NCBI GenBank assembly: GCA_028658405.1
Contig: JAKOGY010000003.1
Span: forward strand, 1-64,000
DNA: 64,000 nt
Direction: 5' to 3'
Source: Dolichospermum sp. ST_sed8
GTDB lineage: Bacteria > Cyanobacteriota > Cyanobacteriia > Cyanobacteriales > Nostocaceae
The number at the start of each line of letters is the position of its first letter. Within the stretch, counting starts at the first letter, position 1. Below the pieces are notes generated by a model. That model did no database searches, was not told where the DNA came from, and worked only from the letters and a program-made list of their open reading frames with translations. Shown one piece after another: positions 8,084 to 64,000 of the stretch. Both the position numbers and the translations under genes were made by a program.

Positions 8084-8161
8084 ACTAATGACTAATGACC
8101 AATGACTAATGACTAATGACCAATGACTAATGACTAATGACTAATGACTAATGACTAATGC
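8084..8161. repeat. Heptamer tandem repeat (STRR), CTAATGA type
   Basis: About eleven tandem copies of a 7-bp unit, ctaatga alternating with ccaatga, lie between element copy 1 and the stop codon of the DUF3172 gene. Such short tandem heptamers are typical of heterocystous cyanobacteria. Confidence 0.85.
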
Positions 8162-8164
8162 TAT

Positions 8165-8704: not shown

Positions 8705-8758
8705 TTTTGCTTTCTTACCTTCATCTCAAGAGTGGTTTTTTAATTTTTCCCTTATATT

Positions 8759-9079: not shown

Positions 9080-9142
9080 TTTAAGTATGCCGAGTCTTGA
9101 GAATAATTATCCGCTATTTTCAATTTTAAAGAAAATTTAAAA

Positions 9143-45531: not shown

Positions 45532-45627
45532 ATGAAATATTAAACTCATCACAGCGATCGCTCAACTCATACAATAGAAGATAGATTATTGCGAATTGTA
45601 TAGTTAGGGATTATAGCTGTTATGGCT
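45532..45627 (+). promoter_or_regulatory. Promoter/leader of the ABC ATPase gene, duplicated at 57591-57686
   Basis: The 90 bp before the ABC ATPase start plus ATGGCT recur inverted at 57591-57686, with one mismatch in 96 bp. The segment includes a HIP1 site (gcgatcgc) and an AT-rich stretch with a tatagtt just before the start codon. It is the promoter by position; no mapped elements are claimed. Confidence 0.7.
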
Positions 45628-46641: not shown

Positions 46642-46839
46642 AAAAAAACACCAATTTTGTTTTTTCAATTAATACGTAGGGTGGGCAATGCCCACCAAAA
46701 CCAGCTATAAAATAAAAATCGCGCTAATTTTTCACTAACTAGTACCGCAAGGCGGAATTAAGAATTTAGAATTTAGAATGAATACAGTATAAGCTTTTCA
46801 CTGATTCGGAATGGTTCATTAACTTACGCCGTACTGTAC

Positions 46840-47269
46840 TAGGGCTTGTTAAAAGCATTAATAGATAAAGGTTTACAGAGTTTTACACAAAAAAAAGTAC
46901 AAAATTATTAACAATAGATGTTTAAAACCCTTGCATTTTAACTAAAAATAACCGCGTAAACTCGAGGGCTAATTGCCCAACTCTTCTCTTCCTTCTTCCT
47001 TCTTTCTTCGTGTCCTTCGCTCCTTCGTGGTTCAGTAGGGGCGTATTGCTATACGCCCCTACTGAATCCTGCGCGGGCGTATTGCAATACACCCTTACTG
47101 ACTCCTGCGCGAGCGTATTGCTATACGCCCCTACTGAATCCTGCGCGGGCGTATTGCTATACGCCCCTACTGAATCCTGCGCGGGTGTATTGCTATACGC
47201 CCCTACTGAATCCTGCGCGGGGGTATTGCTATACGCCCCTTCACGAAAAGACCTTTTCAGCAAACCCTA
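46840..47269 (-). mobile_element. TA-flanked miniature element, copy 3 (longest)
   Basis: This 430-bp copy is inverted relative to copy 1; its left end is TAGGGCTTGT and its right end GCAAACCCTA. It carries about six tandem 36-bp units (gggcgtattgctatacgccc + ctactgaatcctgcgc), which explains the extra length. An artefactual frame through the 36-bp units reads as 12-residue AYSNTPAQDSVG repeats and is not a gene. It sits between the ABC ATPase gene and tRNA-Ser. Confidence 0.72.
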
Positions 47270-47353
47270 AATAATTGTACCCAAAATAACAGCAAGCCTA
47301 ATTTATATCAGACCGAATTCTCTGCGACTCTGAGGGCTAAAAAAATTACTCAA

Positions 47354-47438
47354 CGGAGAGGGGGAGATTCGAACTCCCGGAAGCTTTCACTTCACCTGAT
47401 TTCAAGTCAGGCGCATTCGACCACTCTGCCACCTCTCC
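47354..47438 (-). tRNA. tRNA-Ser (anticodon TGA)
   Basis: On the minus strand the cloverleaf reads: acceptor GGAGAGG, D arm, anticodon stem CCTGA with loop CTTGAAA (anticodon TGA), long variable arm GTGAAGTGAAAGCTTCC, T arm GGGAGTTCGAATCTCCC, acceptor CCTCTCC and discriminator G. The long variable arm confirms the Ser class. No CCA is encoded. Confidence 0.95.
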
Positions 47439-47496
47439 AGGTTATTTGCCAGGATTGTGCAATACAAAAACTGACAAATAAAACCATAACATATAA

Positions 47497-48426
47497 TTAC
47501 AGAATTTGCACTACTGAAATCGAAGAATTATAAAAAACCTCCTCAGCCGCGACCTGGAAGTCTTTACCCACCCAAACCAGAGAGGCTTTTGTGACTACAC
47601 CATCCTCCAAAGAAACCAGAGAAAAATTCCGTAACTTGATACCGTTCTCCTGAATAATCCGGGGAACAGTAGCCGCATTTAGGTAAATTGTTCCCTCTGG
47701 ACTTCTAAACACAGCCTTGCGTTGCAGTTTCTTAGTATGGCGCAGAGTCCGGTGCATATGTCCAAAGGTGACGAGAGAAACATTTTTCTTCAGGTTAAGA
47801 CTTTGAGAAATAGCTTCAGCAAAATCAGGATCACCAAAATCACCGCCAATGGGATGCCAATCTTTGCCACAAGGGTCCTGGGCGCGATCGCCTAAACCAC
47901 TTGGTCCATTGTGTCCGAGAAAAATAATATTGTCACAAGTAACACTTCTGACTACTTTAACGATTTTATCTGCGGATTCTTCTAAATTAGACACACCATA
48001 GCGTTCTTGACACAGTTGGGCAAATCGCCATTCAGGTCCTCCCCAGGTAAAAGGACGACCACCCACCACCGTTAAATTCCAAGCTGGAAAATCCAACTTC
48101 CCATAACCGACATGGGACACTCCCAATAAATCTAATTGTTCTTGTACCCAGTCTTCCTTGGTGCGGTCATAAGGACATTTTTTGCGTCCCCATTCAGTCG
48201 CCGAGTACCAGGCATCGTGGTTGCCCATAACAGCCGCTTTGGGAATATCTAGGGAAGCGATCGCTTTTACCACTTCTACCGATTCATTCCCGAAATCACC
48301 GACAAATAGCGCCAAGTCAACACCAAGCTGCTTGAGTGCTATACCGTCTTCTACTTCCCATTGGTCGTGAACATCGCCAATTACAGCAATTTTCAAGGTT
48401 ATTGATTGAGTTTTCTGACTGGTCAT
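47497..48426 (-). CDS. Metallophosphoesterase (cyanobacterial TIGR04168-like)
   Basis: This 309-aa calcineurin-like phosphoesterase has all metal motifs present: IGDVHDQW, FVGDFGNE, VMGNHDAWYS, FLGHNGPSG and TFGHMHRT. The length and motif spacing match a conserved cyanobacterial/plant family of unknown substrate, which I recall as TIGR04168. It is divergent from nadA with about 150 bp between them. Confidence 0.87.
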   Translation of the reverse strand: MTSQKTQSITLKIAVIGDVHDQWEVEDGIALKQLGVDLALFVGDFGNESVEVVKAIASLDIPKAAVMGNHDAWYSATEWGRKKCPYDRTKEDWVQEQLDLLGVSHVGYGKLDFPAWNLTVVGGRPFTWGGPEWRFAQLCQERYGVSNLEESADKIVKVVRSVTCDNIIFLGHNGPSGLGDRAQDPCGKDWHPIGGDFGDPDFAEAISQSLNLKKNVSLVTFGHMHRTLRHTKKLQRKAVFRSPEGTIYLNAATVPRIIQENGIKLRNFSLVSLEDGVVTKASLVWVGKDFQVAAEEVFYNSSISVVQIL

Positions 48427-48577
48427 GCCACTTTAAAAAGCCGTATATCTCCAGGATATGAAACTAAGCCGGATTTGGAAATAAATTGCTAAGGTTGATC
48501 CTCCACTATTTTTGGTAAAAACTACTATAATTAAATGCACAAGATAATATAACTTTACAAAAAAGCAGTTCCTAATT

Positions 48578-49543
48578 GTGTTTACAACTACACTTACTCA
48601 ACCAAAACCAGGTACTCTGCCATTAGATCTATTTGCTGCCATTGCAGATCTAAAAACAGAACTCAATGCGGTAATATTAGCCCACTACTATCAAGATCCT
48701 GATATCCAAGATATTGCCGACTTTATTGGCGATTCCTTACAATTAGCTAAAGCCGCAGCTAATACCAAAGCAGATGTAATTGTATTTGCTGGTGTTCACT
48801 TCATGGCCGAAACAGCCAAAATCCTCAATCCTGATAAATTGGTATTGCTACCAGATATCAATGCCGGTTGTTCTTTAGCAGATAGTTGTCCACCAAAAGA
48901 GTTTGCTGCCTTCAAAGCTTCACACCCAGACCATTTGGTAATTTCTTATATTAACTGCTCCGCCGAAATTAAGGCCATGAGCGATATTATCTGTACCAGT
49001 TCCAACGCTGTGAAGATTGTCCAGCAAATACCCCAGGAACAGCCGATTATTTTCGCCCCAGATCGTAACTTGGGACGGTATGTAATTGAACAAACCGGAC
49101 GGGAAATGCTGTTATGGCAAGGTAGCTGTATAGTTCATGAGACATTTTCCGAAAAGAAAATAGTCCAGTTAAAAATTACACATCCTCATGCAGAAGCGAT
49201 CGCTCACCCAGAATGTGAAACCAGCGTCTTGCGTCACGCCAGCTTTATTGGCTCTACAGCCGCCTTACTCAACTATTGTCAAACCAGCCCTAGTCAGGAG
49301 TTTATCGTGGCTACAGAGCCAGGAATCATTCACCAAATGCAAAAACTAGCACCCAATAAACACTTTGTTCCTGCCCCCCCGCAAAGTGATTGTAACTGTA
49401 ACGAATGTCCATTTATGCGGCTAAATACCTTAGAAAAGCTGTATTTAGCGATGAAAAACCGCACTCCAGAAATCACATTATCAAAAGAAATTCGCCTAGC
49501 TGCGCTGCGACCAATGCAAAGGATGTTAAAGATGAGTGTGTAG
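48578..49543 (+). CDS. nadA: Quinolinate synthase A
   Basis: This 321-aa 4Fe-4S enzyme condenses iminoaspartate with dihydroxyacetone phosphate to quinolinate in de novo NAD synthesis. Motifs: [60 protein letters not shown] and the C-terminal [17 protein letters not shown] with a cluster Cys. It starts with GTG at 48578; no alternative ATG gives the full N-terminus. Confidence 0.94.
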
Positions 49544-49652
49544 TTATAATTTACAAGAATAACTGCATTGCTGAATCGAATCTAAAAAAATTGTAGGTTA
49601 AGTTAAACAAAGTAAAACTCAACCTACATAATTCAATTTTCTACAATTAATC

Positions 49653-50474
49653 TCAAGAAGTTTGATTACCAGATTTTTCCGTAACCTGTCTTACCGCTTC
49701 AATATCCACAGCTAACCTTGCAGCTATTTCTTCCACAGTCAAACCCAATTCTAATAACAGCGGTACTGTTTCTAACTTACCTTCTAACTTACCTTCTAAC
49801 TTACCTTCTACTTTTGCATCTTCGGCCACTTCTCGGAAATACCGTGTTTGCTTTAATTCATCTAGAGTAAACATTGCTTCAATCTCCTGACGAGTTAAAT
49901 TAGTTAACTTATAAACCAAGATTGTCTCTAACAATTCTAGAACTTTCTGTCTTTTACTGGCATCTGTTAATTGTTTTCGGGTTTTTTGAATCAACTGCCT
50001 GGTATGGTCAATTGCAGTTTCTTCTTTTTCCACAACTAGTTTGACCATTCCCAACCCTACAGAATTATTGGTTGTGACTTCCAACTCATCCAAATAAATC
50101 AACGTGACTTGCTGACTCATTAGCAAACCCCGGTACTGCATTGGCACACCAGGATCTAAGCTACGTTTAGCAAAAATCGCTACTGCATGAAAATCATTTT
50201 TTGGTTGATATTGATTCAGATAAACAAAGATTTCTGTAAATAGTTTCCAGTAAAAATCCGCCTTTGGTTGAAATTGAACCTCTACAAAGTAAATAGGTTG
50301 TTCAGGAATATCCGAAGCAGGTACAAACAAACCATCAAAACGAAATGCTAGTTCCTTAATTTCTACAGATGTAAATTGATATACTTCTGCTTCTGTAGCT
50401 GGCTTACCAATCAATTCAAACAGGATACTCGGCAAAGTCTGAAATAGTTGATAGAATATAGTATCAGTTTTCAC
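49653..50474 (-). CDS. Rpn-family (DUF2887) nuclease-like protein
   Basis: This 273-aa protein of the recombination-promoting nuclease/putative transposase group (PD-(D/E)xK superfamily) has FRFDGLFVP (Asp), YFVEVQFQPKADFYWKLFTEIFVYL (Glu-x-Gln), and a helical C-terminus. The tail includes a tandem KLEGKLEGKLE made of aacttaccttct repeats at about 49778-49807, plus an HTH-like ELGLTVEEIAARLAVDIEAV. These genes are frequent in cyanobacteria, and their role is unclear. Confidence 0.82.
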   Translation of the reverse strand: MKTDTIFYQLFQTLPSILFELIGKPATEAEVYQFTSVEIKELAFRFDGLFVPASDIPEQPIYFVEVQFQPKADFYWKLFTEIFVYLNQYQPKNDFHAVAIFAKRSLDPGVPMQYRGLLMSQQVTLIYLDELEVTTNNSVGLGMVKLVVEKEETAIDHTRQLIQKTRKQLTDASKRQKVLELLETILVYKLTNLTRQEIEAMFTLDELKQTRYFREVAEDAKVEGKLEGKLEGKLETVPLLLELGLTVEEIAARLAVDIEAVRQVTEKSGNQTS

Positions 50475-50508
50475 AATTTTTAAGTTGTTTTACATTAGTT
50501 GAGAAATA

Positions 50509-51399
50509 TTAAGATTTACTTTTTTCAGCTTCTTTCTGGGCAGCCTCACTAAATTTTTTATACAACTTAGTTCTAATCTGTGCTTCTTGATAGCGGCTAT
50601 GACTAGGTGAAACCTGACTCATTAAATCAGAAGCCCGTTGCCAATTAGCAGCCAATTCCAACCACTGAGTTGAAGTTATAGCCGTTTTACCAGCCGCCGT
50701 AGCCTGGTTAGCCAGTCGCACAGAAGCTGCAAATGGATCATTAGATGAATGAGAAAAACTTTGGCTAAGAGGACGATTTGACGATTCTGGCTGTTTCTGG
50801 TCTGCTGTTTGGGAAGATTGAGAACTTGTTAATGGTAAGATATTTTTCAGTGGATTACCTAACCAAGAATCTAGCAACCAAGCTAGTAAAATAACTGAAG
50901 ATAAGCCAGAAACCCCTATAAATAAAGTTTTAACTGAAATTTTGCCCTGATCTTGATTCTTCAGTAAAGATTGGGGTTTTGTTAAAATAGGTGTTCTTGA
51001 TTTGGTATAAGTTTCAGCTAAATCTGAAAATAACCGCTTAAACAAATTTGGTTGAGATACAGTAATTTCCTGTGACCACAGTAATTGACTATCAACATCA
51101 CGGTTAATTTCTTCCAACCATAATAATTGGTCTTCTCGAACAATTCGACTATTGATATTAACTCGACAAATGTGACGCGGTGCAAGTGAGTCCAAAATTT
51201 CTTTAATTTTTGGCACTAAAGTAGATTGTTCCAGTTGCTTTATCGTAGCCGCTTCACACAAAAGTTGTAAAATACCATTGGCAAAAATTGCTCTAGTTCT
51301 GACACCAGAGATAACTAGCTTTTCATTCAAGACTTGAATAATCGCCGCAACGCTGCCCTGGTGAGCTTGCCAAGCGATATCATTTATTCTATCTACCAT
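50509..51399 (-). CDS. Uncharacterised single-pass membrane protein, 296 aa
   Basis: The cytosolic N-terminal domain (about 1-125; VDRINDIAWQAHQGSVAAIIQVLN, then AILQLLCEAATIK-like helices and HICRVNINSRIV) is a conserved cyanobacterial module I cannot name. One transmembrane helix lies near 168-190 (FIGVSGLSSVILLAWLLDSW). The extracytoplasmic part is low-complexity, then helical (WLELAANWQRASDLMSQV). The ATG at 51399 is preferred over one 48 bp upstream because the recognisable domain starts there. Confidence 0.6.
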   Translation of the reverse strand: MVDRINDIAWQAHQGSVAAIIQVLNEKLVISGVRTRAIFANGILQLLCEAATIKQLEQSTLVPKIKEILDSLAPRHICRVNINSRIVREDQLLWLEEINRDVDSQLLWSQEITVSQPNLFKRLFSDLAETYTKSRTPILTKPQSLLKNQDQGKISVKTLFIGVSGLSSVILLAWLLDSWLGNPLKNILPLTSSQSSQTADQKQPESSNRPLSQSFSHSSNDPFAASVRLANQATAAGKTAITSTQWLELAANWQRASDLMSQVSPSHSRYQEAQIRTKLYKKFSEAAQKEAEKSKS

Positions 51400-51570
51400 T
51401 TTATATTTAGTGATAGCTCTCACACACCCTGACCTCTGAACTAACATAACCTAAGTTGCTAGTAACTGGACTTTAGGCAGGGAAAAGGTAATTGGTAAAA
51501 ATTATTGCTTCTTGCCTTTTGCCTTTTGCCAACTAGCAACTTACGTTAATATACATTCAATTTACATATA

Positions 51571-52704
51571 TCAATTGTAAATTTGAGCAACTCTATATTC
51601 TATTTGCTCAAGTGCGAATTGCCACACTTGATAACCTGCTGGGGATAAATGCAATCCATCCGTAGTTAATTCAGGACGCAAGTTACCATCAGTATCCGTA
51701 AACCAGTTATGAATATTCAGATAATTAGCCCCTTGCTTTTGAGCAATTACAGCAAGTTGGGCATTAATATAACGAATTCGACTATTAGCGATTTTCCCAG
51801 AGCGTACAGGTAAGATAGATTGAACAATAATCTGACTGGTAGCATGACTCTGACGTAAACGGTGAATAATCCGCGAGGAATTTAGCAAAATTGATTTGTC
51901 AGTAGCACCCTTACGTAAATCATTAATCCCAATCATTAAATAAATTACATCAGGCTTAGTTGCCGAAAATGCTGACAATCTTTTAGAAACCCCCTCGGAA
52001 GTATCACCAGATATACCTTGATTCAGCCATAATTTACCCGTAGGTAGTTTATCTTTAGGAAACCACAAACTTAAAGAATCACCTACCAAAATACTCAAAC
52101 GGTTTACACCTTGACCCTTGGTGATAGCTTTAGCTTCCATAGCTAAAAGGCTCTTCCAGTCTTGATAACTTAGTTTATATACTTTGTCTGACTCCCAGGA
52201 TGATTCTGAATGTTCATCATTATCAGTGCGCGTATAAATGTGACCAGTTCTCAATGCTGTTAATCTTTGCTGGTAGAGTTGACCACCAGAAACAGGTGAT
52301 TGAGTTGGAGTTATTTGGGAATTAAAGTTAAATGATGATTTTATTGGTGTTGATAATCCACGCTGTCTAAATTCTGATAATAAAATTCCCAAACTGGGGA
52401 GGTTTTTCCTGATTGCTGATGATTGTTCAACCTTCGACAGAGTTTGTCTACTAAATTCTGGTGATGATGTATCAATCTTGGCAATACTCTTCCTAAAGGG
52501 GGAAGACTTTTCAGTTTGATTACTAAATTCAGGTACAGCAATTTGACGGGGAGAAATTTTTTCGCTGTCGTAAGATTGAAAACCCTGTGCTAAATCCAAC
52601 AAGGATAGAGAATCTTTTGGCAGATTAGGGCTTTGGGGAATTGTTGATGTTGGGATTACCAATCCTGTTAACAAGCCTGCGGCCAACAGATAAGGTTCAC
52701 TCAT
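51571..52704 (-). CDS. SGNH/GDSL-family hydrolase
   Basis: This 377-aa protein has a short hydrophobic N-terminus (LLAAGLLTGLVIP), a Ser/Gln-rich linker to about residue 185, and an SGNH hydrolase domain. Block I is ILVGDSLSLWF (nucleophile Ser), block III IYLMIGINDLRKG (Asn) and block V DGLHLSPAGYQVW (Asp and His). It is probably an exported or periplasmic esterase/acyl hydrolase; substrate unknown. It is transcribed in the same direction as the membrane protein downstream. Confidence 0.85.
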   Translation of the reverse strand: MSEPYLLAAGLLTGLVIPTSTIPQSPNLPKDSLSLLDLAQGFQSYDSEKISPRQIAVPEFSNQTEKSSPFRKSIAKIDTSSPEFSRQTLSKVEQSSAIRKNLPSLGILLSEFRQRGLSTPIKSSFNFNSQITPTQSPVSGGQLYQQRLTALRTGHIYTRTDNDEHSESSWESDKVYKLSYQDWKSLLAMEAKAITKGQGVNRLSILVGDSLSLWFPKDKLPTGKLWLNQGISGDTSEGVSKRLSAFSATKPDVIYLMIGINDLRKGATDKSILLNSSRIIHRLRQSHATSQIIVQSILPVRSGKIANSRIRYINAQLAVIAQKQGANYLNIHNWFTDTDGNLRPELTTDGLHLSPAGYQVWQFALEQIEYRVAQIYN

Positions 52705-53845
52705 CGTTGTTTTGTTCCTTGTGCGTATTCACTACTTTTTCTTATGACAGCGTTAACTAAGTGAATTCAGGAAGATTTCGATTTCTGTCTATTTTTCTAG
52801 TTCACAATATTTAACATTGTTAAGGAATAGAACGCTATTAGATCCGCTTAACTATCATCCATGCTGTTAAGTTAGGATTAAAAGATACTAAAAATGAAAA
52901 TTTATAACTTGAAAAGACTTGCCACATCTAGCTTATAGCGTTTTATGTGTTTTTATCTCACCATCATTTTCTCATGTCTTATTCCTTGATCATCTACTAA
53001 ATTTGAAGTTTCATACTTTTGATAGATGACAATTATTAATGATTTATGATTTAGGTCGTAACAAAAATTAACAAATAATTATTCCAGTATCAATTTTCGT
53101 TTGTAAAAAAATAGAGCTAAAAAGCTGGAAGTCTTAATTTATAAGGTCTAAATAGCATCTTATTTTTTAAAATAGATATGTTTATTAATACCTGTTAGTT
53201 TCAAAGCCTGACTATTAATCCAATCAAAAATATGTCATATTATTATGCAATTTTAGCAATATATTGATATGCAATAAAATAAGAAAATCGTGGAAATGCT
53301 TGCTACAGAAGAGTTGTAACTCCATTCAAACTATCCCTTGATGATCTAGTAAATTCGGTGTTTCATCCATCAAAAGGATGAAAATTATGCATTATTTGTA
53401 ACGTTGGTTATAAAAAAAATCAATAAATCAGTATATTGATATCAATTTTCGCTTGTAAAAAAATAGAGCTAGAAAGCTGAAAAGTCTAATATATAAGGTT
53501 TAAACAGCATATTATTTTTTTTTAGGCAGGTACGTTTATTTATACTTATTCACTTAAATATTTTACTATTAATACAAATAAAAATATGTGATTTTATTGT
53601 GTAATTTTAATAACATAACTATGTGCAGCAAAATAAGTAAATCTTGAAAATGCTTGCTACAGAAGAGTTATGTCCGTAGTCAGAAAGTTAGATTTGCAGA
53701 ATTATTGAGTCTGTTTGCTATTCATAGTCTGGACTAGACATATAAAGATTTATCGAAACTAAAGTAGATCAGTTCTGGGGATATAGAATAACTTCGCAAA
53801 AAGTGCTACTATTCATCTGATGTCATTAATGTTTTCTTTTATCCC
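52705..53845. repeat. Long AT-rich non-coding region with a diverged ~352-bp direct duplication
   Basis: Two units, about 52984-53335 and 53336-53690, align at a constant offset of 352-354 bp. Shared stretches include caattttcg(t/c)ttgtaaaaaa, atagagcta(a/g)aaagctg, and atgcttgctacagaagagtt. The units have drifted and hold no open frame. The rest of the stretch shows no gene. Confidence 0.75.
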
Positions 53846-54040
53846 GTGGCTAGAGCTAGTACAGCAATCGGTGTATCTCCCATCATTAAGGAGATTGTGC
53901 AAAAACAGGCACATTCAACTCGCTTAACCTTGAAAGAGGTTATTCTCATGGGAATGTTGGCAATTGATAAGTTAGATGATCAAAATTGTCAAGAATTGGC
54001 AGATCAAGTTCATCAAATGCAGGTTAATGGTGAAATCTAG
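53846..54040 (+). CDS. Small hypothetical protein, 64 aa
   Basis: A GTG-started frame encodes ARASTAIGVSPIIKEIVQKQAH...TRLTLKEVILMGMLAIDKLDDQN and a short tail. It is predicted helical. The pattern TRLTLKEVILMGML could be a DNA-binding-like or ribbon-helix-helix helix, but I do not recognise it. It lies at the end of the duplicated AT-rich region. A real gene is likely because of ordered amphipathic helices, though no function can be offered. Confidence 0.5.
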   Translation: MARASTAIGVSPIIKEIVQKQAHSTRLTLKEVILMGMLAIDKLDDQNCQELADQVHQMQVNGEI

Positions 54041-54131
54041 AACTGCTGGCCAGAGTCTTAAATTCAAAGTCTCAAGCCTCGAGTTCACAAGCTAAAAGAT
54101 AGCCAGGGTGGTATTGTGATTTATCAAATCT

Positions 54132-54450
54132 CTACTCTTGGCTAAAACAATAGCAATTTCCCATTAAATAGTTCTCATTCAGTTCCAAAATTAACCACCG
54201 GTGTTGCTGATTTTTAGTAACAACTGCCGTTGTGTTAGAACCAGCGAAGGGATCTAGAATTAGATACCCTTCATGTCTAAAAAACTTAATAAAAAACTCA
54301 GATAAACCCTGAGAAACGGTCTTGGATAAGGTTTAATTCCTGCTTGTTTACAGCGGTGGAAATAAGCAATATTAGACTTTATGTTCGCAATCTTCAGCAA
54401 ATTTTGCTGAATTGCCCCTGATATTCCTTTAGGAATTGAGCAGAAATATC
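54132..54450 (-). pseudogene. Decayed C-terminal fragment of a DNA methyltransferase
   Basis: Minus-strand reading gives ISGAIQQNLLKIANIKSNIAYFHRC... with KQAGIKPYPRP in one frame (to about 54330). After a frameshift it continues as VSQGLSEFFIKFFRHEGYLILDPFAGSNTTAVV and HRWLILELNENY, ending at a TAG (54132-54134). LDPFAGSNTT is the AdoMet-binding motif I of amino-methyltransferases of the HPARFP...PEFFIKF type. No N-terminal part is left. This is a dead methylase, probably once part of a restriction system. Confidence 0.75.
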
Positions 54451-54639
54451 ATGTCCAAGTCGTAAAATATTTTAGCCTTATAGCCGTTTTTGAGTAGTTT
54501 TGCATACTCTGGCTATAAGGCTTTGATATTTTTTAATTATTTATTTGGGTTCTGATTTAAGAATTATGCTGATTTCTGATATTTAGTGTTAATGATTGTG
54601 AGTTAAAAAGTTTGACAAAAATAGTTAAGAAATAAAAAT

Positions 54640-55365
54640 TCAAAATAATGCCATTATCGCAGCGGGAGAACCAGAACCTCCTTTCAACCGGAGAATCCCA
54701 ATGATTAAGGTAGTACCTTGGGGTGGTAAATTATCTAAGTTGGTGAGGTTTTCGATCACAATTAGTGATCGCTCCAAGAGCAACCGATTAATAGTAAAAT
54801 TGGCATCTTGCCCAGAATCTACACCGTGAGTATCTATGCCCACTCCAGCAATTTGCCTGTGTATAATTAAAAACTCAGTCGCTTCTTGGCTAAAACCGGG
54901 AAAGTGCATCTTTCCTTGTATATCTTGGTTAAAAAACGCTTTTTGATTTGACCATTTTTCTTGCCAACCAGTATATAGTATGACCAAATTACCTGCGGGA
55001 ATTTGCCCAAATTGAGTTTCCCAAGTTTGAATATCACTAACAGTCAAGACATAATCAAAATCCACTGCCGCTTGTTTGCAAATATTGATAACTATAGCAG
55101 GTACTATGAGGGATGATGCTGGATATTGGTCAATACTTACACCGTTTGCATAGAAGCTATTGGGGGCGTTAATATGAGTGGCGCTATGTTCTCCCAAAGA
55201 AAAGCCTCGTAAGTAATAACCATCATCCTGAATTTCTGCAACACTAGTAAATTCTACGGTCGGATCACCAGGCCATTTGGGTATATCTGTATCAATCAGA
55301 TGGCTGAGATGAATAACGCGAGAGTAACTAATATTACTTGATAGGTGAGAATTTTTGCTAGTCAA
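54640..55365 (-). CDS. Cyclase-family protein (kynurenine formamidase-like)
   Basis: This 241-aa protein of the metal-dependent cyclase/kynurenine formamidase fold starts HLSHLIDTDIPKWPGDPTVEF and has the metal motif region GEHSATHINAPNSFYANG. The usual HxGTHxDxP reads HSATHINAP, so Asp is replaced by Asn. Later TGWQEKW, GVGIDTHGVDSG and a C-terminal LPPQGTTLIIGILRLKGGSG match. The substrate is unknown; the Asp-to-Asn change may affect metal binding. Confidence 0.82.
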   Translation of the reverse strand: MTSKNSHLSSNISYSRVIHLSHLIDTDIPKWPGDPTVEFTSVAEIQDDGYYLRGFSLGEHSATHINAPNSFYANGVSIDQYPASSLIVPAIVINICKQAAVDFDYVLTVSDIQTWETQFGQIPAGNLVILYTGWQEKWSNQKAFFNQDIQGKMHFPGFSQEATEFLIIHRQIAGVGIDTHGVDSGQDANFTINRLLLERSLIVIENLTNLDNLPPQGTTLIIGILRLKGGSGSPAAIMALF

Positions 55366-56016
55366 AGGGATTTATTCCTAATTTGATGACATTTTCATAA
55401 ATAAGCCCCCAAGCCTTTTCACTTCAAGGTAATTGGGGGGGGATTTTAATGTTGCAGCAAAAAGTGAATTTAATATCATTAAACAGTGAAAAAGTTAAGC
55501 TTTAAATAAGGAATAGTTAATTTTAGATAAACTTTTTTAAAATTAGGATTATAGGAATCCGGTTTGATTTTTTATCTAGGGAATCTGTAAATAATTCCTT
55601 CTTGATCACTTGCCTCAAAATTAGCATTTAATTGTTTAGCTTTTTTGTCTAAATATATTTTTTTGAATGTTTTCATAGATTTTATTTTCACAAGATTTAC
55701 AACTACTATAGGACTAATATTTGATTTTTGAAATATACTATTGGTGGGCATTGCCCACCAAAACCCTTATCCGGTGGGCAATGCCCACCCTACTTATCAT
55801 TTATGATTTCTATATATGCTACTGGTATACAACAGGAAAAGATTTACACACTAATAGCATTTTAGGTAGGGAATTGTTACCGATTTTTAGTGAAATGTAA
55901 AGATTTGTAAAACATCAGGTAAGTTTTGAAAATTAGACTGAGAAACAAAAGAACAGATACTTGAAAACACTGTTTATATATCTAAACTCTTCTACCTTAT
56001 CTGCCAGAAATTAAAT
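55366..56016. other. AT-rich intergenic region upstream of the symporter
   Basis: This 651-bp stretch has no convincing gene. It has a loose hairpin at 55402-55442 (cccccaagcc/ggtaattgggggg) and two copies of the ggtgggca(t/a)tgcccacc palindrome (about 55743-55790), also found at 22029, 33899 and 46677. Confidence 0.55.
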
Positions 56017-57276
56017 ATGAGAAAAACTGCGTTGAAAAAATATAAATCATGGAAGCATATTCCTTTAGCATTGCAGATTGTCATTGCGATCATTTTAGCC
56101 GTAATCCTGGGGACTTTGCTGGGTAGTCAATCAGCAAATAATGCTGATTTAATCAATCACTTGGTTATCCCCTGTAACTTAATACTCAAGGCTCTGAGGG
56201 CATTGGCAACACCACTGATTATGTTAGCCATACTTCACTCATTTCTCACTGCCGATATCCCTGGTAAAGCTGGTCGCCGTTTGGCTGTGCTGCTACTCAC
56301 AAATACGACTGTAGCCATCTTCATTGGCCTTTTTGTCGCCAATGTTCTACAACCCGGTTCATGGGGTCGTCTTGCTCCTCCAGTCAGCAAAGAAGCATTA
56401 ATAACTAAGACTTTCGATCCTTGGTCACTAATCCAAGATATTGTCCCGGATTCAGTTCTTAAACCTCTGGTTGACAACAACGTTATTCAACTGATTTTTC
56501 TGGCTTTAGCTTTTGGGATAGTTTTACGTGGCTTGAAAGCACAGCAAATATCTGAAGATAAAACAGATTACCAAGTCATTGAAGGGGTAATCACAATCTT
56601 GTTTGCAGCAGTTATCCGCATTTTGCACTGGATTATCGCTTTAGTTCCATTGGCTGTTTTTGGAATTGTGGCGAAAACCGTTGCCCTTCAGGGTTTTGCA
56701 CCATTTAAAGCTCTGGGTGCGTTCATTTTGGCAGTATTATTAGCTTTGTTTTTGCAAGCTTGTTATTATTTGCTGCGGGTGAAGTTTGGTTCTTGGGTAA
56801 AGCCAAAAAGCTTGTTGCGTGGGGGTTCTGAAGCTTTATTAACAGCCTTTTCTACGGCTTCTTCAACGGCAACAACACCTATTACTTTTGAGGCTTTGCT
56901 GAAAAAAATTGGTTTGCGGGAGTCTTCCGCTTCTCTAGGGGCGCTGGTTGGTAGCAATTTTAATAATGATGGTACTGCTCTGTATGAGGCTATGTCAGCA
57001 TTATTTATTGCCCAAGTGTTGGGGTTGCATCTTTCTTTACCACAGCAGTTGATTGTTGTTCTCACATCTATTTTTGCTTCTGTGGGTGCAGCAGGTATTC
57101 CAGAAGCTGGTTTGGTAACAATGACTCTGGTATTTACTTCTGTTGGTTTACCTACTGAATATATTGCTTTATTAGTAACTGTGGACTGGTTTCTTGATCG
57201 TTGTCGCACTGCTATTAATGTTATGGGTGATATGACTGTTAGTTGTTTACTTGATGGTAAACATCGTAAAGTTTAG
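56017..57276 (+). CDS. Dicarboxylate/amino acid:cation symporter (DAACS family)
   Basis: This 419-aa membrane protein of the GltP/DctA type has eight helices plus re-entrant loops. The Ser/Thr-rich hairpin is AFSTASSTATTPITFEAL, the NMDGT-like motif is FNNDGTALYEAMSALFIAQ, and late Asp residues lie in TVDWFLDRCRTAINVMGDM. It imports glutamate, aspartate or C4-dicarboxylates with Na+ or H+. Element copy 4 begins 2 bp after its stop codon. Confidence 0.9.
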   Translation: MRKTALKKYKSWKHIPLALQIVIAIILAVILGTLLGSQSANNADLINHLVIPCNLILKALRALATPLIMLAILHSFLTADIPGKAGRRLAVLLLTNTTVAIFIGLFVANVLQPGSWGRLAPPVSKEALITKTFDPWSLIQDIVPDSVLKPLVDNNVIQLIFLALAFGIVLRGLKAQQISEDKTDYQVIEGVITILFAAVIRILHWIIALVPLAVFGIVAKTVALQGFAPFKALGAFILAVLLALFLQACYYLLRVKFGSWVKPKSLLRGGSEALLTAFSTASSTATTPITFEALLKKIGLRESSASLGALVGSNFNNDGTALYEAMSALFIAQVLGLHLSLPQQLIVVLTSIFASVGAAGIPEAGLVTMTLVFTSVGLPTEYIALLVTVDWFLDRCRTAINVMGDMTVSCLLDGKHRKV

Positions 57277-57277
57277 T

Positions 57278-57597
57278 TAGGGCTTGCTGATAACGTCGCG
57301 TGGCGTAAGCCATAAAAGTCTTTTCGTGAAGGTAGGGGCGTATTGCAATACGCCCCTACTCCAATACGCCATTACTCCAATAGGTCTTTGCTGCAATACG
57401 CCCTTACTGAACCACGAAGGAGCGAAGGACACGAAGGAAGAAGGAAGAGAAGATTTGGGCAATTAGTCCTCGAATTTACGCGGGTATTTTTAGTTAAAAT
57501 GCCAGGGTTTTAAACATCTATTGTAATTTTGCTTTGCGTGTAAACCTCTGTAAATTTTTATCTATCAATGCTTTTACTTTCTTTTTTGCAAGCCATA
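57278..57597 (+). mobile_element. TA-flanked miniature element, copy 4
   Basis: This 320-bp copy is in the same orientation as copy 1. Its left end is TAGGGCTTGCTGATAACG and its right end GCAAGCCATA (one change from consensus). It holds a perfect gtaggggcgtattgcaatacgcccctac palindrome and degraded 36-bp units. Its right end overlaps the inverted copy of the ABC ATPase promoter (ATGGCT is shared), so element and duplicated sequence are joined here. Confidence 0.72.
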
Positions 57598-57686
57598 ACA
57601 GCTATAATCCCTAACTATACAATTCGCAACAATCTATCTTCTATTGTATGAGTTGAGCGATCGCTGTGATGAGTTTAATATTTCAT
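57591..57686 (-). repeat. Inverted duplicate of the ABC ATPase promoter and start codon
   Basis: The reverse complement matches 45532-45627 at 95 of 96 positions (one A/G difference). It contains the promoter, leader, ATG and second codon of the ABC gene but no coding body. Outside this window the flanks diverge completely. Confidence 0.9.
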
Positions 57687-58105
57687 AGTCCCTTTAGGGC
57701 TGAGTTACTGACATGGAGATAAAAATACAAGGAACGAAAATAGGCGTTAGAGTTAATTAATCATCTGAATTTGGACTTACATCGTCTGTAATCTTGCCAG
57801 ATACAGGTTTAACGAACTTGACTATAAGTGGATTTAAGTTAGGCTGAAAGCGTCTCAATTTTATCAGTTACAATTGTGAATAGATAGGGGAAGCTCAAAT
57901 ATAAATTTTAGTACCTCCGTCTTCTCAGATTATTCTGAGCAATTGAATTGTTTGATACTGCTGAAAGTATAATTATCCACTAACCTAAGCGAAACAACTC
58001 ATGAACAACTAAAAATTGTATTATATATCCTACAATGCCAGTTCATGAGAAAATCTAAAGAAAATATAAAATAAACTCAACTGACTGTGGTGTCTGGAGA
58101 AAAAA
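57687..58105. other. Intergenic region with no recognised gene
   Basis: About 420 bp between the promoter duplicate and the DUF1815-like gene. No frame, RNA gene or strong repeat was seen. The RBS-like ctggaga at 58095-58099 belongs to the next gene. Confidence 0.5.
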
Positions 58106-58495
58106 GTGTTTTTAAGACTAGCAAACGAACATAGACAATTTGTGCAAGATTTGGTAATGAACCTGCAAGCCTTAGCGGTTGTCCTAGAACGGCACGGTTA
58201 TCCGGCTTCCTGCTATACTTGCGGCAATCAGATGAATAGTGCATCCTTTATGGTGAGCTTAGGAGACAATCATCTAATTCGCTTTTTAGTATCAGATTAT
58301 GGTATTACCTGGACAGAAATGCGTGATGATCGAGAGTTAATGAAGTTAGAAGGCGCAGAAGCGATTAGCCAGTTAGAAGAACTAGCTACTCTTGTTAAAC
58401 AATCAATGCAAACTGTGAAAGATATTGAATATTCATCTCCAAAGAGTAAGCGAATTTTACAGAATCCTGTGGGAAGTGTAAAAAGCCACCGATAG
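58106..58495 (+). CDS. DUF1815-like conserved cyanobacterial protein
   Basis: This 129-aa soluble protein includes NEHRQFVQDLVMNLQALAVVLERHGY, SCYTCGNQMNSASFMVSLGD and IRFLVSDYGITWTEMRDDREL. I recall this as DUF1815, a cyanobacterial family of unknown function. The GTG start at 58106 is supported by GGAGA at a 6-bp spacing. A CxxC pair (CYTCG) could bind metal or be redox active. The C-terminal 30 residues are basic and less conserved. Confidence 0.7.
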   Translation: MFLRLANEHRQFVQDLVMNLQALAVVLERHGYPASCYTCGNQMNSASFMVSLGDNHLIRFLVSDYGITWTEMRDDRELMKLEGAEAISQLEELATLVKQSMQTVKDIEYSSPKSKRILQNPVGSVKSHR

Positions 58496-58642
58496 CAGAC
58501 TGAAACTATGTTTAAATTTCAGTTTGCTATTTTTTACTATCTGTTAGGAATAACTGTACTGAACATCCTGACAGCCTTGAAACTATTGATTTTGCAGGCT
58601 AACAAACTCCTCTGTTGGCCTGTTATAAATTCGTAGTCGTCC

Positions 58643-59470
58643 CTAATTATTGATAGAATTTACTGATGTAGGAATTTGAGGGATCTTAATTTCTAAAAAA
58701 TCGTTATCTTTGAGAATTTGATAAAGATTGACATTTTCCTCTAACAAACAAGCATGACCGCTATGGGGTAGGATAAACGTCTGAGTATTTGGTATTATAT
58801 CTGCTAATCTGACGATTTCACTCACAGAAGGTAATAAGCGATCGCCACCACTACCAATCAGTAATACTGGTTGTGTTAACTGCTTTAATGCTTCTTGATC
58901 AACTTGGAAATCTCGCAATAATGACAAATGCCAATTAACAGTTGCTGGAGGAAGGGAACGCATCGCTGTGAGTAACATTAGGCGATCGCTTTGAGCAATC
59001 CGTTCTAATGATGCCAGAAACGGTAACAAACCCAATGCACCAATATTAAATAGGGATGATGGCACAAAGTGAGTAACCTGGGTTATCCAATTAAACCAAG
59101 GGCGCTGCTGCAAAGATGAAGCGGGATTAATTAAGATAATACGTTTAAATAACTGCGGTGATTGGGTTGCTACTTTCATTGCTAAACAACCACCAAAAGA
59201 TTCACCACAAAGGTAGATTGTCCGTTGACAGCTTTTTTTCAACTCCGCATGAATCAAGTCTAAAACATTCTTTGCTAAAACATCCCAGGTAGTCAAGTAA
59301 TTTTTGGGTATAGCCAAGCAACGAACATCTAAACTTTTTGCTAATTCAGGGATTTGGGTTTGCAACAATTCACCAGTTCCATCCATTCCTGGCAAATAGA
59401 TAAATAATGGAGAATCTGATTTTACTGGTTTTGGAGTCAAAAAACAAGGTTTAGGTTCAACTGCTGGCAT
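58643..59470 (-). CDS. Alpha/beta hydrolase
   Basis: This 275-aa alpha/beta-fold protein has the LFIYLPGMDGTGELLQTQ N-terminal strand-loop, the nucleophile elbow GESFGGCLA (Ser in GxSxG), and LLIGSGGDRLLPSVSEI with the later catalytic His in LPHSGHACLLEE. It resembles the hydrolase half of phytyl ester synthase/diacylglycerol acyltransferase proteins, but no acyltransferase domain follows. Substrate uncertain. Confidence 0.8.
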   Translation of the reverse strand: MPAVEPKPCFLTPKPVKSDSPLFIYLPGMDGTGELLQTQIPELAKSLDVRCLAIPKNYLTTWDVLAKNVLDLIHAELKKSCQRTIYLCGESFGGCLAMKVATQSPQLFKRIILINPASSLQQRPWFNWITQVTHFVPSSLFNIGALGLLPFLASLERIAQSDRLMLLTAMRSLPPATVNWHLSLLRDFQVDQEALKQLTQPVLLIGSGGDRLLPSVSEIVRLADIIPNTQTFILPHSGHACLLEENVNLYQILKDNDFLEIKIPQIPTSVNSINN

Positions 59471-60201
59471 TTTATTGATTTTTCTTCGTCTATTCTATTT
59501 TTAACTTTACCGTTTCTGTTATCTAAATGGGCATTGGTGCAGAATTTTTATTTTTCTTCTCTTCACTAAAATCAACCTTTCCAGACAAAAAATAACCCAC
59601 TCTGAAACCATGATTACAGAATTGATGGCGATTTGTATTCATCATATATAAATATATGGAAGCGTTAAATCCTTTTAACTGGCAATAGTTTCATATTGGC
59701 ATTACAAATAATAATATAGCCTTCCGAAACGATTGATCAACTTCAATCAAATAGGATTGCTATATATAAAGCAGTGATAAATCTCTATGTTGCTAGTACA
59801 GAAAGGCCGAGTTGAAAATTAAACCTTCCTCTTGTTTTATTTGGGAAGATATTTAATATCGAAACTAACAGTTTTGTCAATTATTACTTGGAGTATCTGA
59901 TATGCAAAATTATAGCTACACAATTGCTTGTATCGCTAGAGTTTAGATTAGTGTATTCTCTGTAACTACTAATCAAACAAACAGGTTTTACGATGATTAT
60001 TAGTAAATACTTTCTCTGATTTAGCAACAAATCAGGTGAATTTATAGAAGTAATCAAGCAATTTTTCAGTCTATAAACTCATGATCATTCAGGAGGAATT
60101 TGAAAAAAACAGTAGCAATGTTATATAATTGCGTAGTTTTGTCTAGTAATCTAGATTATTAATAGAGAAAACTGATTAATAATAATTTGCTTTTATTTTC
60201 C
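59471..60201. other. Intergenic region upstream of metG
   Basis: About 730 bp of AT-rich sequence without a convincing gene. An aggagg at 60091-60096 is followed by a very short frame, which is probably chance. No T-box-like structure was recognised before metG. Confidence 0.5.
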
Positions 60202-61797
60202 ATGAATTTTGTGAATAAAACAGAAAACACTTTTGCACTGACAACACCACTATACTATGTCAACGATATCCCCCATATTGGCAGTGCTTATACAACTATA
60301 GCAGCGGATGTAGTAGCTAGATTTAATCGTTTGCAGGGAAATCAAGTGCTACTAATTACGGGTACAGATGAACACGGACAAAAAATTCAGCGTTCAGCAG
60401 CAAGTTTAGGAAAAGCACCACAAGATTTTTGTGATGAAATTGTCCCCAGTTTTGTCAGCTTGTGGGATTTACTCGATATTCAATATGACCGCTTTAGTCG
60501 CACTACTGCACCTCGTCACCAAGCGATAGTTAACGAGTTCTTTGGGCGAGTTTGGGAAAAAGGTGATATCTACCAAGGAGAACAAAAGGGTTGGTACTGC
60601 GTTTCCTGTGAAGAATTTAAGGAAGAGCGAGATTTACTAGCAGATAAACACTGTCCTATACATACTAACAAGCAAGTAGAGTGGCGAGATGAGCAGAACT
60701 ATTTCTTCCGCTTGTCTAAATATCAAACCCAGCTAGAGGAATTTTTCCAATCCCACCCAGATTTTATCCAACCTATCAGCAGACGAAATGAAGTTTTCAA
60801 TTTTGTCGCTCAAGGTTTACAGGATTTTTCGATTTCGCGGGTAAATCTTGATTGGGGTTTTCCTGTACCTGTTGATTCTAAACATACCTTATATGTCTGG
60901 TTTGATGCTTTGCTGGGTTATGTAACAGCATTGTTAGAACCAGATGCAGAACCAACCTTAGCCAATGCTTTACAAACATGGTGGCCGATTAATTTGCACT
61001 TGATTGGTAAAGATATTTTACGCTTTCATGCTGTTTACTGGCCTGCAATGTTGATGTCAGCGGATTTACCCTTACCAGAAAGAGTATTTGGACACGGTTT
61101 TTTAACTAAAGATGGTCAGAAAATGGGGAAGACTTTAGGCAATACCCTCAACCCTATCACTTTAGTTGAAAAATATGGTAGTGATGCCGTTCGTTATTAC
61201 TTCCTTAAGGAAATTGAATTTGGGAAGGATGGCGATTTTAATGAGATTAGGTTCATTAATGTTTTAAATGCAGATTTAGCGAATGATTTAGGTAATTTAT
61301 TAAATCGCACTTTAAACATGGTGAAGAAATACTGCGCTAGTCAAGTACCGTCCATTAACCAATCAGAAATTCCGGCTGAAAATCCTTTAAAAGCAATGGG
61401 GTTACAGTTAGGAGAAAAGGTGAAACAAGCATATACAGCATTAGCTTTTAATGAAGCCTGTAACTATGTTTTATCTCTGGTGCAAGCCAGTAATAAGTTT
61501 ATTGATGATCAGGCTCCTTGGTCATTATATAAACAAGATAAGCAGAAGGAAGTGGAAGTGGTGCTATATACGGTTCTGGAATCGGTGAGACTAGCGGCTT
61601 ATCTTTTATCCCCAATTATTCCTAATATCAGCAGTGATATTTATCAACAATTAGGCTGGGGAATTGATTTTAATAAACAAAAAGAAAGTGCGATTTTAAC
61701 TCCTTTTTGTACCCATTCCACTTATGGAATATTATCCGATAAACAACATTTGGGAACACCTAAACCAGTTTTTCAACGGATAGAAACATCAAAATAA
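60202..61797 (+). CDS. metG: Methionyl-tRNA synthetase
   Basis: This 531-aa class I aminoacyl-tRNA synthetase has the HIGH-like motif PHIGS (24-28) and a zinc-binding connective knob with Cys pairs (YCVSCEEF about 133; HCPIH about 150). The KMSKS-like loop is KMGKTLGN (about 306) in DGQKMGKTLGNTLNP. The ATG at 60202 is preferred over a TTG five codons upstream. It lacks the C-terminal tRNA-binding appendix, as in many cyanobacteria. Confidence 0.95.
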   Translation: MNFVNKTENTFALTTPLYYVNDIPHIGSAYTTIAADVVARFNRLQGNQVLLITGTDEHGQKIQRSAASLGKAPQDFCDEIVPSFVSLWDLLDIQYDRFSRTTAPRHQAIVNEFFGRVWEKGDIYQGEQKGWYCVSCEEFKEERDLLADKHCPIHTNKQVEWRDEQNYFFRLSKYQTQLEEFFQSHPDFIQPISRRNEVFNFVAQGLQDFSISRVNLDWGFPVPVDSKHTLYVWFDALLGYVTALLEPDAEPTLANALQTWWPINLHLIGKDILRFHAVYWPAMLMSADLPLPERVFGHGFLTKDGQKMGKTLGNTLNPITLVEKYGSDAVRYYFLKEIEFGKDGDFNEIRFINVLNADLANDLGNLLNRTLNMVKKYCASQVPSINQSEIPAENPLKAMGLQLGEKVKQAYTALAFNEACNYVLSLVQASNKFIDDQAPWSLYKQDKQKEVEVVLYTVLESVRLAAYLLSPIIPNISSDIYQQLGWGIDFNKQKESAILTPFCTHSTYGILSDKQHLGTPKPVFQRIETSK

Positions 61798-62004
61798 TCA
61801 AAATTTTTTGGGAACTGCGACTTCCTTTCCAAAGATTCGGGGACTTACTTACAGCTTATGGCTATTTAAGGGAGTAAATAATTGATGTGGTTTTACTACT
61901 GATTTTATGACTTCTGATGTATTGTCCCCGAAAACTTATCATAAGCAATTCTAACAATTAGGTAGTTAGGATTTTCTATCAGAACAGGGATAACAATATA
62001 AGGT

Positions 62005-62643
62005 ATGACAACAATGTTGAATAATTTTGAAAACGACTCAATTTTTACACCAGAACAAGTTTTGGAAAATCGAGGTCGGGTAGCTATCTTTATTGATGGC
62101 TCGAACTTATTTTATGCGGCGCTGCAACTAGGAATCGAAATTGATTATACTAAGTTATTGTGCCGTTTAACTGGAGGATCAAGGCTGTTACGGGCTTTTT
62201 TCTACACAGGGGTAGATCGGACAAATGAGAAGCAACAGGGCTTTTTGTTGTGGATGCGTCGCAATGGTTATAGAGTCATTGCTAAGGATTTGGTACAACT
62301 GCCAGATGGCTCTAAAAAAGCTAACTTAGATGTAGAAATAGCTGTTGATATGATGGCCTTGTGCGATTCCTATGATACCGCAGTTTTAGTTAGCGGTGAC
62401 GGCGATTTGGCTTATGCGGTTAATTCTGTGAGTTATCGTGGTGTTAGAGTCGAGGTGGTGAGTTTACGTTCTATGACTAGTGATAGTTTAATTAATGTGA
62501 GCGATCGCTATATTGATTTAGAAGCTATCAAAGAAGATATCCAAAAAACTCCCCGTCAAAGTTATCCATATCGGCCATTGTCTAGTATGGGCTTTTTAGA
62601 TGATCATCGAGACAGCAATAGACATATAGAAGTTCCAGAATAA
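62005..62643 (+). CDS. NYN-domain protein (LabA/DUF88-like)
   Basis: This 212-aa protein has a NYN (PIN-like) domain: RVAIFIDGSNLFYAALQLGIEID, then KKANLDVEIAVDMMAL and TAVLVSGDGDLAYAVNSVSYRGVRVEVVS. The conserved acidic residues (Asp of IDGSN, Asp of ANLDVEI, Asp of SGDGDL) that coordinate metal in PIN-like RNases are present. LabA in Synechococcus affects circadian output; RNA processing is a possible role. It overlaps lptC by one base (TAATG). Confidence 0.87.
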   Translation: MTTMLNNFENDSIFTPEQVLENRGRVAIFIDGSNLFYAALQLGIEIDYTKLLCRLTGGSRLLRAFFYTGVDRTNEKQQGFLLWMRRNGYRVIAKDLVQLPDGSKKANLDVEIAVDMMALCDSYDTAVLVSGDGDLAYAVNSVSYRGVRVEVVSLRSMTSDSLINVSDRYIDLEAIKEDIQKTPRQSYPYRPLSSMGFLDDHRDSNRHIEVPE

Positions 62644-63887
62644 TGCAATATTCACAAGGTAGGGAGAATGGAAAACAAGATGCAAAACATCAGAGGGGAA
62701 CTAAAAATCATTCTCCCCACTTCTATTCATTTTTTGAGTTCAGATTACCAGCTAATTTAGTTTACCTACCTTTGATATTTTTCCTGGCTTTATGTTTATC
62801 TGCTTGCGGAAATCCATCAACTACCACATCAAAACCTGCTGCTTCATCTCCCAAAGAAGACGATACTAAGTTAACTTTTTTTGGTGTGGCTTTAGAACAA
62901 TTTGATGAGGTAGGGAGGCCAATTTGGAAAGTTAAAGCCAAAGAAGCAAAATATACTACAGATAAACAAATAGGTCAGGCACAAAATCCGGAAGGGGAAC
63001 TTTACCAAGATGGAAAAGTTGTTTACCAAATTAAAGCAGAAAAAGCTGACATTAAGCAAGATGGTAAGCAACTATTTCTTCAAGGTAAAATTGTCGCTAC
63101 AGATCCCCGGAATGGGATTGTCTTCAAAGGTAATGAGTTAGAATGGCGGCCTCAAGAAGATTTATTGATTATTCGCAATCAATTAAATGGTAGCCACAAG
63201 CAATTACAAGCAGTAGCCCAAGAAGCTAGGGTAAAAACCCGTGAACAACGGGTAGAATTTTCAGGAGGAATAGTTGCAAAATCCACAGATCCACAGTTGC
63301 AAATGCAGACGGAGCATTTAATGTGGCATATTAAGGAGGAGAAATTATTTAGCGATCGCCCCATTCAAATAGAAAGATATAAAGATAACAAAATTACTGG
63401 ACGTGGTACTGGTAAAGCGGCAGAAATTAACTTAAAAACTCAAATTGCGACTCTTAAACCACAGGCACAATTAGAGTTAATAGATCCACAGATCCAAATT
63501 ATCAGTAACTCCATAACCTGGAATATTAACAAAGAAAATATCACAACAAATTCTCCCATTCGGATATTCCAAGTTGCTGATAATGTAACTGTCACTGCTA
63601 ATCAGGGACAAATGCAAATACCCACAAAAACAGCATATCTAACAGGTAATGTTCATGCAGTTGGGAACCGTCGTCAGTCTTTAAAATCAAATCAACTTAC
63701 CTGGTATTTAGATAAAAAATCGTTAGAAGCCCAAGGAAATGTAGTTTATAGTCAAATTGAACCAAAATTAACTTTTCAAGGGGAAACAGCCCTTGGTAAT
63801 TTAGAAACAGAACATATTGTTGTTAAAGGTGGTAATTCTTCTGGACGCAGAGTAGTAACGGAAATTATCCCCCAGGAAAATAGGTGA
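62643..63887 (+). CDS. lptC: LPS export periplasmic protein LptC
   Basis: This 414-aa protein has a long polar N-terminus, then a hydrophobic signal/anchor ending in LFLALCLSACG-like lipobox (LALCLSACGN; Cys near residue 56). LptC/OstA-like beta-jellyroll repeats follow (FGVALEQFDEVGRPIWKVKA; then two more, about 150-400). It belongs to the Lpt bridge that carries lipopolysaccharide to the outer membrane. Three repeats are longer than enterobacterial LptC but typical of cyanobacteria. The start overlaps the preceding stop codon. Confidence 0.85.
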   Translation: MQYSQGRENGKQDAKHQRGTKNHSPHFYSFFEFRLPANLVYLPLIFFLALCLSACGNPSTTTSKPAASSPKEDDTKLTFFGVALEQFDEVGRPIWKVKAKEAKYTTDKQIGQAQNPEGELYQDGKVVYQIKAEKADIKQDGKQLFLQGKIVATDPRNGIVFKGNELEWRPQEDLLIIRNQLNGSHKQLQAVAQEARVKTREQRVEFSGGIVAKSTDPQLQMQTEHLMWHIKEEKLFSDRPIQIERYKDNKITGRGTGKAAEINLKTQIATLKPQAQLELIDPQIQIISNSITWNINKENITTNSPIRIFQVADNVTVTANQGQMQIPTKTAYLTGNVHAVGNRRQSLKSNQLTWYLDKKSLEAQGNVVYSQIEPKLTFQGETALGNLETEHIVVKGGNSSGRRVVTEIIPQENR

Positions 63888-63888
63888 C

Positions 63889-63945
63889 AGGTAATAGGTA
63901 ATAGGTAATAGGTAATAGGTAATTGGTAATTGGTAATAGGGAGAA
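63889..63945. repeat. Heptamer tandem repeat (STRR), TAGGTAA type
   Basis: About seven to eight 7-bp units (taggtaa, later ttggtaa) begin right after the lptC stop codon. Confidence 0.85.
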
Positions 63946-64000
63946 AAATTTTCTTCTTTCTTCCTCCTGGCTCGGTGACTCGGTGACTCCTAACTCCTAA

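What the first reader, a model, noticed from the sequence alone, without database searches (positions are those of the whole stretch)
57588..57686. Inverted copy of a promoter fused to a mobile element end, 12 kb from the original
Seen: 57591-57686 is the reverse complement of 45532-45627 with one mismatch, covering the promoter, leader and first two codons of the ABC ATPase gene. Its edge coincides with the right end of element copy 4. Element copy 3 lies 0.2 kb after the ABC gene in inverse orientation. A possible history is insertion at the TA next to the ABC start codon, followed by duplication or an inversion between copies 3 and 4. A second active promoter now points towards the symporter in antisense.
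Basis: partly seen in the sequence, partly recalled or inferred. Interest (0 to 1): 0.68.

Follow-up and report, generated by a model that had tools for sequence, protein, structure and literature searches.

The report
Promoter relic beside an inverted block
A 96-base second copy of a transporter gene's start region in a bloom-forming cyanobacterium is a scar left when mobile elements flipped and re-joined a 10-kb piece of chromosome; it is real and unusually readable, but of a known kind.

Summary
57591-57686 is the reverse complement of 45532-45627 (96 nt, 1 mismatch). The genome has only these two copies, and all 15 congeners have one full copy. The genome belongs to the Dolichospermum/Anabaena/Aphanizomenon group.

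In all 8 congeners where the neighbouring block lies within 7 kb of the ABC gene, it has the opposite relative orientation. Element copies 3 and 4 carry mismatched flanks, although intact copies have 6-bp TANNTA target duplications. Undoing the inversion restores symporter-TAGTTA-element-TA[second MITE]TAGTTA-ABC, and the joined flanks match the empty site in the nearest relative. This is the classic sign of recombination between two inverted element copies.

The 96 bp is a relic of a second ABC upstream region cut at two mobile-element joints: a MITE end at the start codon, and TCAT, the target of an IS200/IS605-like element, followed by 27 bp of that element's right end and then a block that is elsewhere in relatives. 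Copy 2 keeps the ancestral base at the mismatch.

Antisense promoter activity was not shown. How the leader doubled is unresolved. An ordinary kind of rearrangement, well preserved.

The parts
45532..45627 (+). Native copy: promoter/leader plus ATGGCT of the ABC ATPase gene; carries the derived A at the single mismatch
   Evidence: upstream continuation TCATTTTGGGAT (reverse strand) shared with congeners
45622..46641 (+). ABC transporter ATPase (ABC_tran + DrrA1-3_C)
   Evidence: intact in all 16 genomes of the genus
46642..46741 (+). Rest of the ancestral ABC-symporter intergenic region, ending in CACTAACTA (reverse complement TAGTTAGTG)
   Evidence: matches the G011 intergenic region
46742..46839 (+). 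Second MITE family (GTACCGC...GTAC, TA-flanked), sitting in the TA of the TAGTTA target duplication
   Evidence: 47 matches in own genome
46842..47267 (-). MITE copy 3; right end faces the ABC gene, left end faces the tRNA gene; flanks mismatched
47268..57279 (.). Inverted 10-kb block (tRNA gene, phosphoesterase, nadA ... cyclase, dicarboxylate symporter)
   Evidence: opposite relative orientation in 8 of 8 congeners where block and ABC gene are adjacent
56017..57276 (+). Sodium:dicarboxylate symporter (SDF); convergent with and next to the ABC gene in relatives
57280..57595 (+). MITE copy 4; left flank TAGTTA, right flank TAACAG, terminal base A instead of C
57591..57686 (-). Second copy of the ABC leader (relic); ancestral G at the mismatch; inner edge AGCC shared with the MITE end, outer edge TCAT
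57687..57713 (+). 27-bp right-end remnant of an IS200/IS605-like (TnpB-type) element whose target is TCAT
57714..63966 (+). DUF1815-metG-lptC block, located elsewhere in relatives (about 21 kb before the tRNA gene in G011, further away or on another contig in others)

Best explanation
57591-57686 is a relic of a second copy of the ABC gene's upstream region, trapped at a chromosomal rearrangement joint. SHOWN: (1) In the ancestor the symporter was convergent with the ABC gene. A MITE inserted between them at TAGTTA, and a second MITE then inserted in that duplication. (2) The 10-kb block from the tRNA gene to the symporter is now inverted and flanked by two MITE copies whose target duplications are exchanged, as recombination between two inverted copies would leave. 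(3) The relic ends inside a MITE end at the ABC start codon and, on the other side, at TCAT followed by 27 bp of an IS200/IS605-like right end and then the displaced DUF1815-metG block. INFERRED: the leader existed twice because two chromosome copies of a polyploid cell, or a duplicative inversion, contributed to the final chromosome. The redundant ABC body was removed at the MITE joint, and the IS200/IS605-like element brought in or joined the DUF1815 block. The relic probably has no selected function.
For: Synteny: opposite orientation of the block relative to the ABC gene in 8 of 8 congeners where both are within 7 kb. TSD rule: 8 copies with identical 6-bp TANNTA flanks, versus 2/6 for copy 4 and 3/6 for copy 3 in place. 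Un-inverted flanks align with the empty site of G011 over 111 nt with a single TAGTTA. Second MITE family flanked by TA. IS200/IS605-like left ends follow TCAT (T 26, C 21, A 25, T 25 of 27), and the right end matches 57687-57713. Two copies only in this genome, one full copy in each of 15 congeners. Copy 2 carries the base found in almost all relatives.
Against: No genome with an intermediate arrangement was found. The second target duplication (TATTTA on the tRNA side of copy 3) has no partner at copy 4, so only one of the two expected exchanged pairs is restored. The step that put a second leader beside the MITE end is not observed. The TCAT match at the outer edge could be chance (about 1 in 256). 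The assembly is a 532-contig draft.
Confidence: 0.72

Rival explanations
1. Duplicative inversion (staggered breaks, or DNA duplication associated with inversion): the whole ABC-leader segment was copied in inverse orientation to both ends of the inverted block in one event, and one copy was later reduced to 96 bp.
For: Gives a leader at both ends of the block in exactly the observed orientations; the relic lies on the symporter side in the ancestral orientation. The process is known (PMC3355041, PMC8963470).
Against: If MITE copy 4 had been duplicated along with the leader, copies 3 and 4 should be about as alike as the two leaders (99%), but they share 86% over the matched 200 nt and differ at the right end. 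The restored TAGTTA pair points to recombination between different copies.
Confidence: 0.3
2. Simple history of the first reader: MITE inserted at the TA of the ABC start codon in a duplicated copy, then inversion between copies 3 and 4, with no role for other elements.
For: Copy 4's right end abuts TA next to the start codon; another copy (L083) has the same C-to-A terminal base and a perfect duplication.
Against: No matching duplication (TAGTTA versus TAACAG); TAACAG is not a TANNTA target; AGCC is shared by element end and start codon, so a microhomology or recombination joint is possible; the IS200/IS605-like right end at the other edge is ignored.
Confidence: 0.2
3. Selected relocation: the copy is a working promoter that makes an antisense RNA against the symporter.
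For: All conserved columns of the upstream region, including TACAAT, are retained; orientation is towards the symporter.
Against: A consensus scan gives promoter-like hits at about chance rate; 316 bp of MITE with strong inverted repeats lies in between; the copy is young (1/96), so its intactness needs no selection.
Confidence: 0.06
4. Assembly artefact at repeats.
For: Draft genome of 532 contigs; MITEs and IS ends are abundant and some contigs end in them.
Against: Other copies of the MITE are mostly under 90% alike, the 96-bp repeat is shorter than typical reads, and the exchanged target duplication and IS joint would not be produced by a misassembly. The segments that flank these joints in relatives lie on other contigs, as expected if the joints are real.
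Confidence: 0.05

Closest known systems
Inversion by ectopic recombination between inverted transposon copies with exchanged target duplications (described for Drosophila, PMC3355041)
   Same: Inverted block flanked by two inverse copies of one element; flanks exchanged; undoing the inversion restores a duplication and an empty site
   Different: Only one of two duplication pairs is restored; here the elements are bacterial MITEs and one joint carries a 96-bp leader relic
[quoted passage not shown] Helicobacter pylori, Thermus; described in PMC8963470 citing Furuta et al. 2011)
   Same: Single-copy DNA found in inverse orientation at both ends of an inversion, with gene birth or death at a breakpoint; in the Thermus case a breakpoint near a gene start
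   Different: The duplicated stretch is only 96 bp now, is bounded by mobile-element ends on both sides, and MITE recombination left its own signature
IS200/IS605 family (TnpA/TnpB elements)
   Same: Tetranucleotide target next to the left end, subterminal hairpin at the right end, TnpB-like ORF in a full-length relative

Membership tests
Transposon-mediated (ectopic recombination) inversion | Block inverted relative to relatives | tested here: met
   8 of 8 congeners with adjacency
Transposon-mediated (ectopic recombination) inversion | Inverse copies of one element at both breakpoints | tested here: met
Transposon-mediated (ectopic recombination) inversion | Exchanged target-site duplications | tested here: inconclusive
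   Met for TAGTTA; the other pair (TATTTA/TAACAG) does not match
DNA duplication associated with inversion | Originally single-copy DNA in inverse orientation at both ends of the inverted block | tested here: met
DNA duplication associated with inversion | No repeat-mediated recombination needed at the breakpoints | tested here: not met
   MITE copies at both breakpoints, restored target duplication
IS200/IS605-type element at 57687-57713 | Short fixed target before the left end, no target duplication | tested here: met
   TCAT before most of 27 left ends; TCAT at 57683-57686
IS200/IS605-type element at 57687-57713 | Right-end subterminal hairpin | tested here: met
   CTCAGTCCCTTTAGGGCTGAG in family members; partial in the remnant
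IS200/IS605-type element at 57687-57713 | Y1 transposase (tnpA) gene | not tested
   Only a TnpB-like ORF was seen in related loci, recognised by eye and not scanned
Active antisense promoter | Transcription start at the copy | not testable with these tools
   Consensus scan at chance level

The most novel reading that the evidence does not exclude
A promoter-leader module became portable by being framed by a MITE end and an IS200/IS605-type end, and its relocated copy now drives an antisense transcript through the MITE into the symporter gene.
Probability: 0.05. Interest if true: 0.45.

Novelty: new member of a known kind. Interest (0 to 1): 0.22.

Why it matters
It is a base-level record of how two or three unrelated small mobile elements together rearranged a cyanobacterial chromosome: which element inserted where, which copies recombined, and what scrap of a gene stayed behind. 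It shows that a displaced promoter copy can be a breakpoint scar rather than a regulatory invention, and gives a simple test, exchanged target duplications, for reading such scars in draft genomes.

Tried and rejected
A third copy or dispersed repeat: rejected, only two copies in the genome. An RNA family at the leader: nothing plausible in Rfam; the listed hits are the tRNA region and microRNA models on the tandem repeats inside copy 3. A single duplication of MITE plus leader: disfavoured because copies 3 and 4 differ far more than the leaders. Finding the reciprocal joints in this genome: the segments flanking both joints in relatives map to other short contigs (C258, C311) that end without giving the partner joint. 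G011 also diverges from the other congeners right after TCAT upstream of the leader, but whether that is a decayed IS insertion could not be decided. The genome contigs pattern scan names the group but leaves out the window's own genome.

Full report
Observation. The window contains a 96-nt inverted repeat, 45532-45627 and 57591-57686, with one mismatch. It spans the upstream region and ATGGCT of an ABC ATPase gene (45622-46641). The assembly has no third copy. All 15 other genomes of the genus have one full copy upstream of the ABC gene. Named records with the same leader are Dolichospermum, Anabaena and Aphanizomenon.

Which copy is older. At the single mismatch, copy 2 has the base found in nearly all relatives (GATTGTTGCG). 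The copy at the ABC gene has the derived base (GATTATTGCG), which otherwise appears only in G009. Beyond 45532 the native copy continues as in other congeners; copy 2 does not.

Gene order. In G011 (the nearest relative), G009, G014, G002 and G015 the symporter gene or its remnant is next to and convergent with the ABC gene; in G013 the symporter is missing but the cyclase and its upstream region lie there in the same orientation. Comparing strands of the cyclase gene and the ABC gene across the genus, all 8 genomes with both within 7 kb (G001, G002, G005, G009, G011, G013, G014, G015) have the relative orientation opposite to this genome. The block 57714-67389 follows directly here but lies before the tRNA gene in G011 (its end is some 18-21 kb away), much further away in G009, and on another contig in several others.

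MITE signature. The element at 57280-57595 (copy 4) and 46842-47267 (copy 3) belongs to a family with dozens of copies in this genome. Full copies elsewhere have matching 6-bp flanks of form TANNTA (TAAATA, TACTTA, TATATA, TATTTA, TAACTA, TAGTTA). In place, copies 3 and 4 do not: copy 4 has TAGTTA and TAACAG, and copy 3 has TATTTA on the tRNA side and TA plus a second MITE on the ABC side. That second MITE (46742-46839) is flanked by TA in its family. Undoing the inversion gives symporter-TAGTTA-element-TA[second MITE]TAGTTA-ABC. Joining the flanks and keeping one TAGTTA gives a 111-nt stretch that matches G011's uninterrupted site. Exchanged target duplications at chimeric copies are the textbook sign of inversion by recombination between inverse transposon copies (PMC3355041).

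The outer edge. After ATTTCAT at 57686 come 27 bases (AGTCCCTTTAGGGCTGAGTTACTGACA) that equal the right end of a dispersed element. Related loci carry an ORF that reads as TnpB, and the element's left ends follow TCAT in most of 27 cases. TCAT therefore marks the joint as one of IS200/IS605 type. To its right, native DUF1815 upstream sequence begins at 57714.

How the leader doubled. A single inversion between copies 3 and 4 does not create a second leader. Either two chromosome copies of one cell contributed, or the inversion was duplicative, as in DNA duplication associated with inversion (PMC8963470). If MITE copy 4 had been duplicated with the leader, copies 3 and 4 should be about 99% alike; they are 86% alike over the matched 200 nt and differ at the right end. 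The right half of copy 4 is therefore a different insertion, or recombined with one. The shared AGCC at the joint (57591-57594) also allows a microhomology joint. These steps are inference.

Function. The copy keeps every conserved column of the upstream region, including TACAAT. Promoter-like matches are no more frequent than expected by chance in either region. No transcript data were available. Absence of decay is expected for so recent a copy. I regard the antisense promoter as possible but unlikely to matter.

Verdict. It is a well-preserved scar of known processes.

Noticed in passing
45570-45603: The leader holds a dyad TACAAT...ATTGTA, so the consensus scan sees a -10-like hexamer on both strands; the stretch from TACAAT to the ATG is almost invariant across the genus and one other genus of the family.
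   Followed up: partly
47034-47245: MITE copy 3 contains a 36-bp tandem array (GTAGGGGCGTATTGC units) absent or shorter in the other copies.
   Followed up: no
L101:11477-11882: In the nearest relative G011 the symporter gene has lost most of its length (only its last 252 bp remain), so the symporter is dispensable there.
   Followed up: no
L101:13285-13310: In G011 the sequence upstream of the leader also departs from that of other congeners right after TCAT, the IS200/IS605-like target, so this site may be a recurrent breakpoint.
   Followed up: partly
L013-L018, just upstream of the leader: A subgroup of congeners has a hairpin (GATCCCCGACTTCTT...AAGAAGTCGGGGATC) placed right before the conserved leader, another rearrangement at this gene start.
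   Followed up: no
52980-53670: Two direct repeats (76% identical, spacing about 352 bp) between the SGNH hydrolase and cyclase genes, conserved in relatives.
   Followed up: no
7780-9084: Copies 1 and 2 of the MITE lie in inverse orientation 0.7 kb apart and could invert the segment between them.
   Followed up: no
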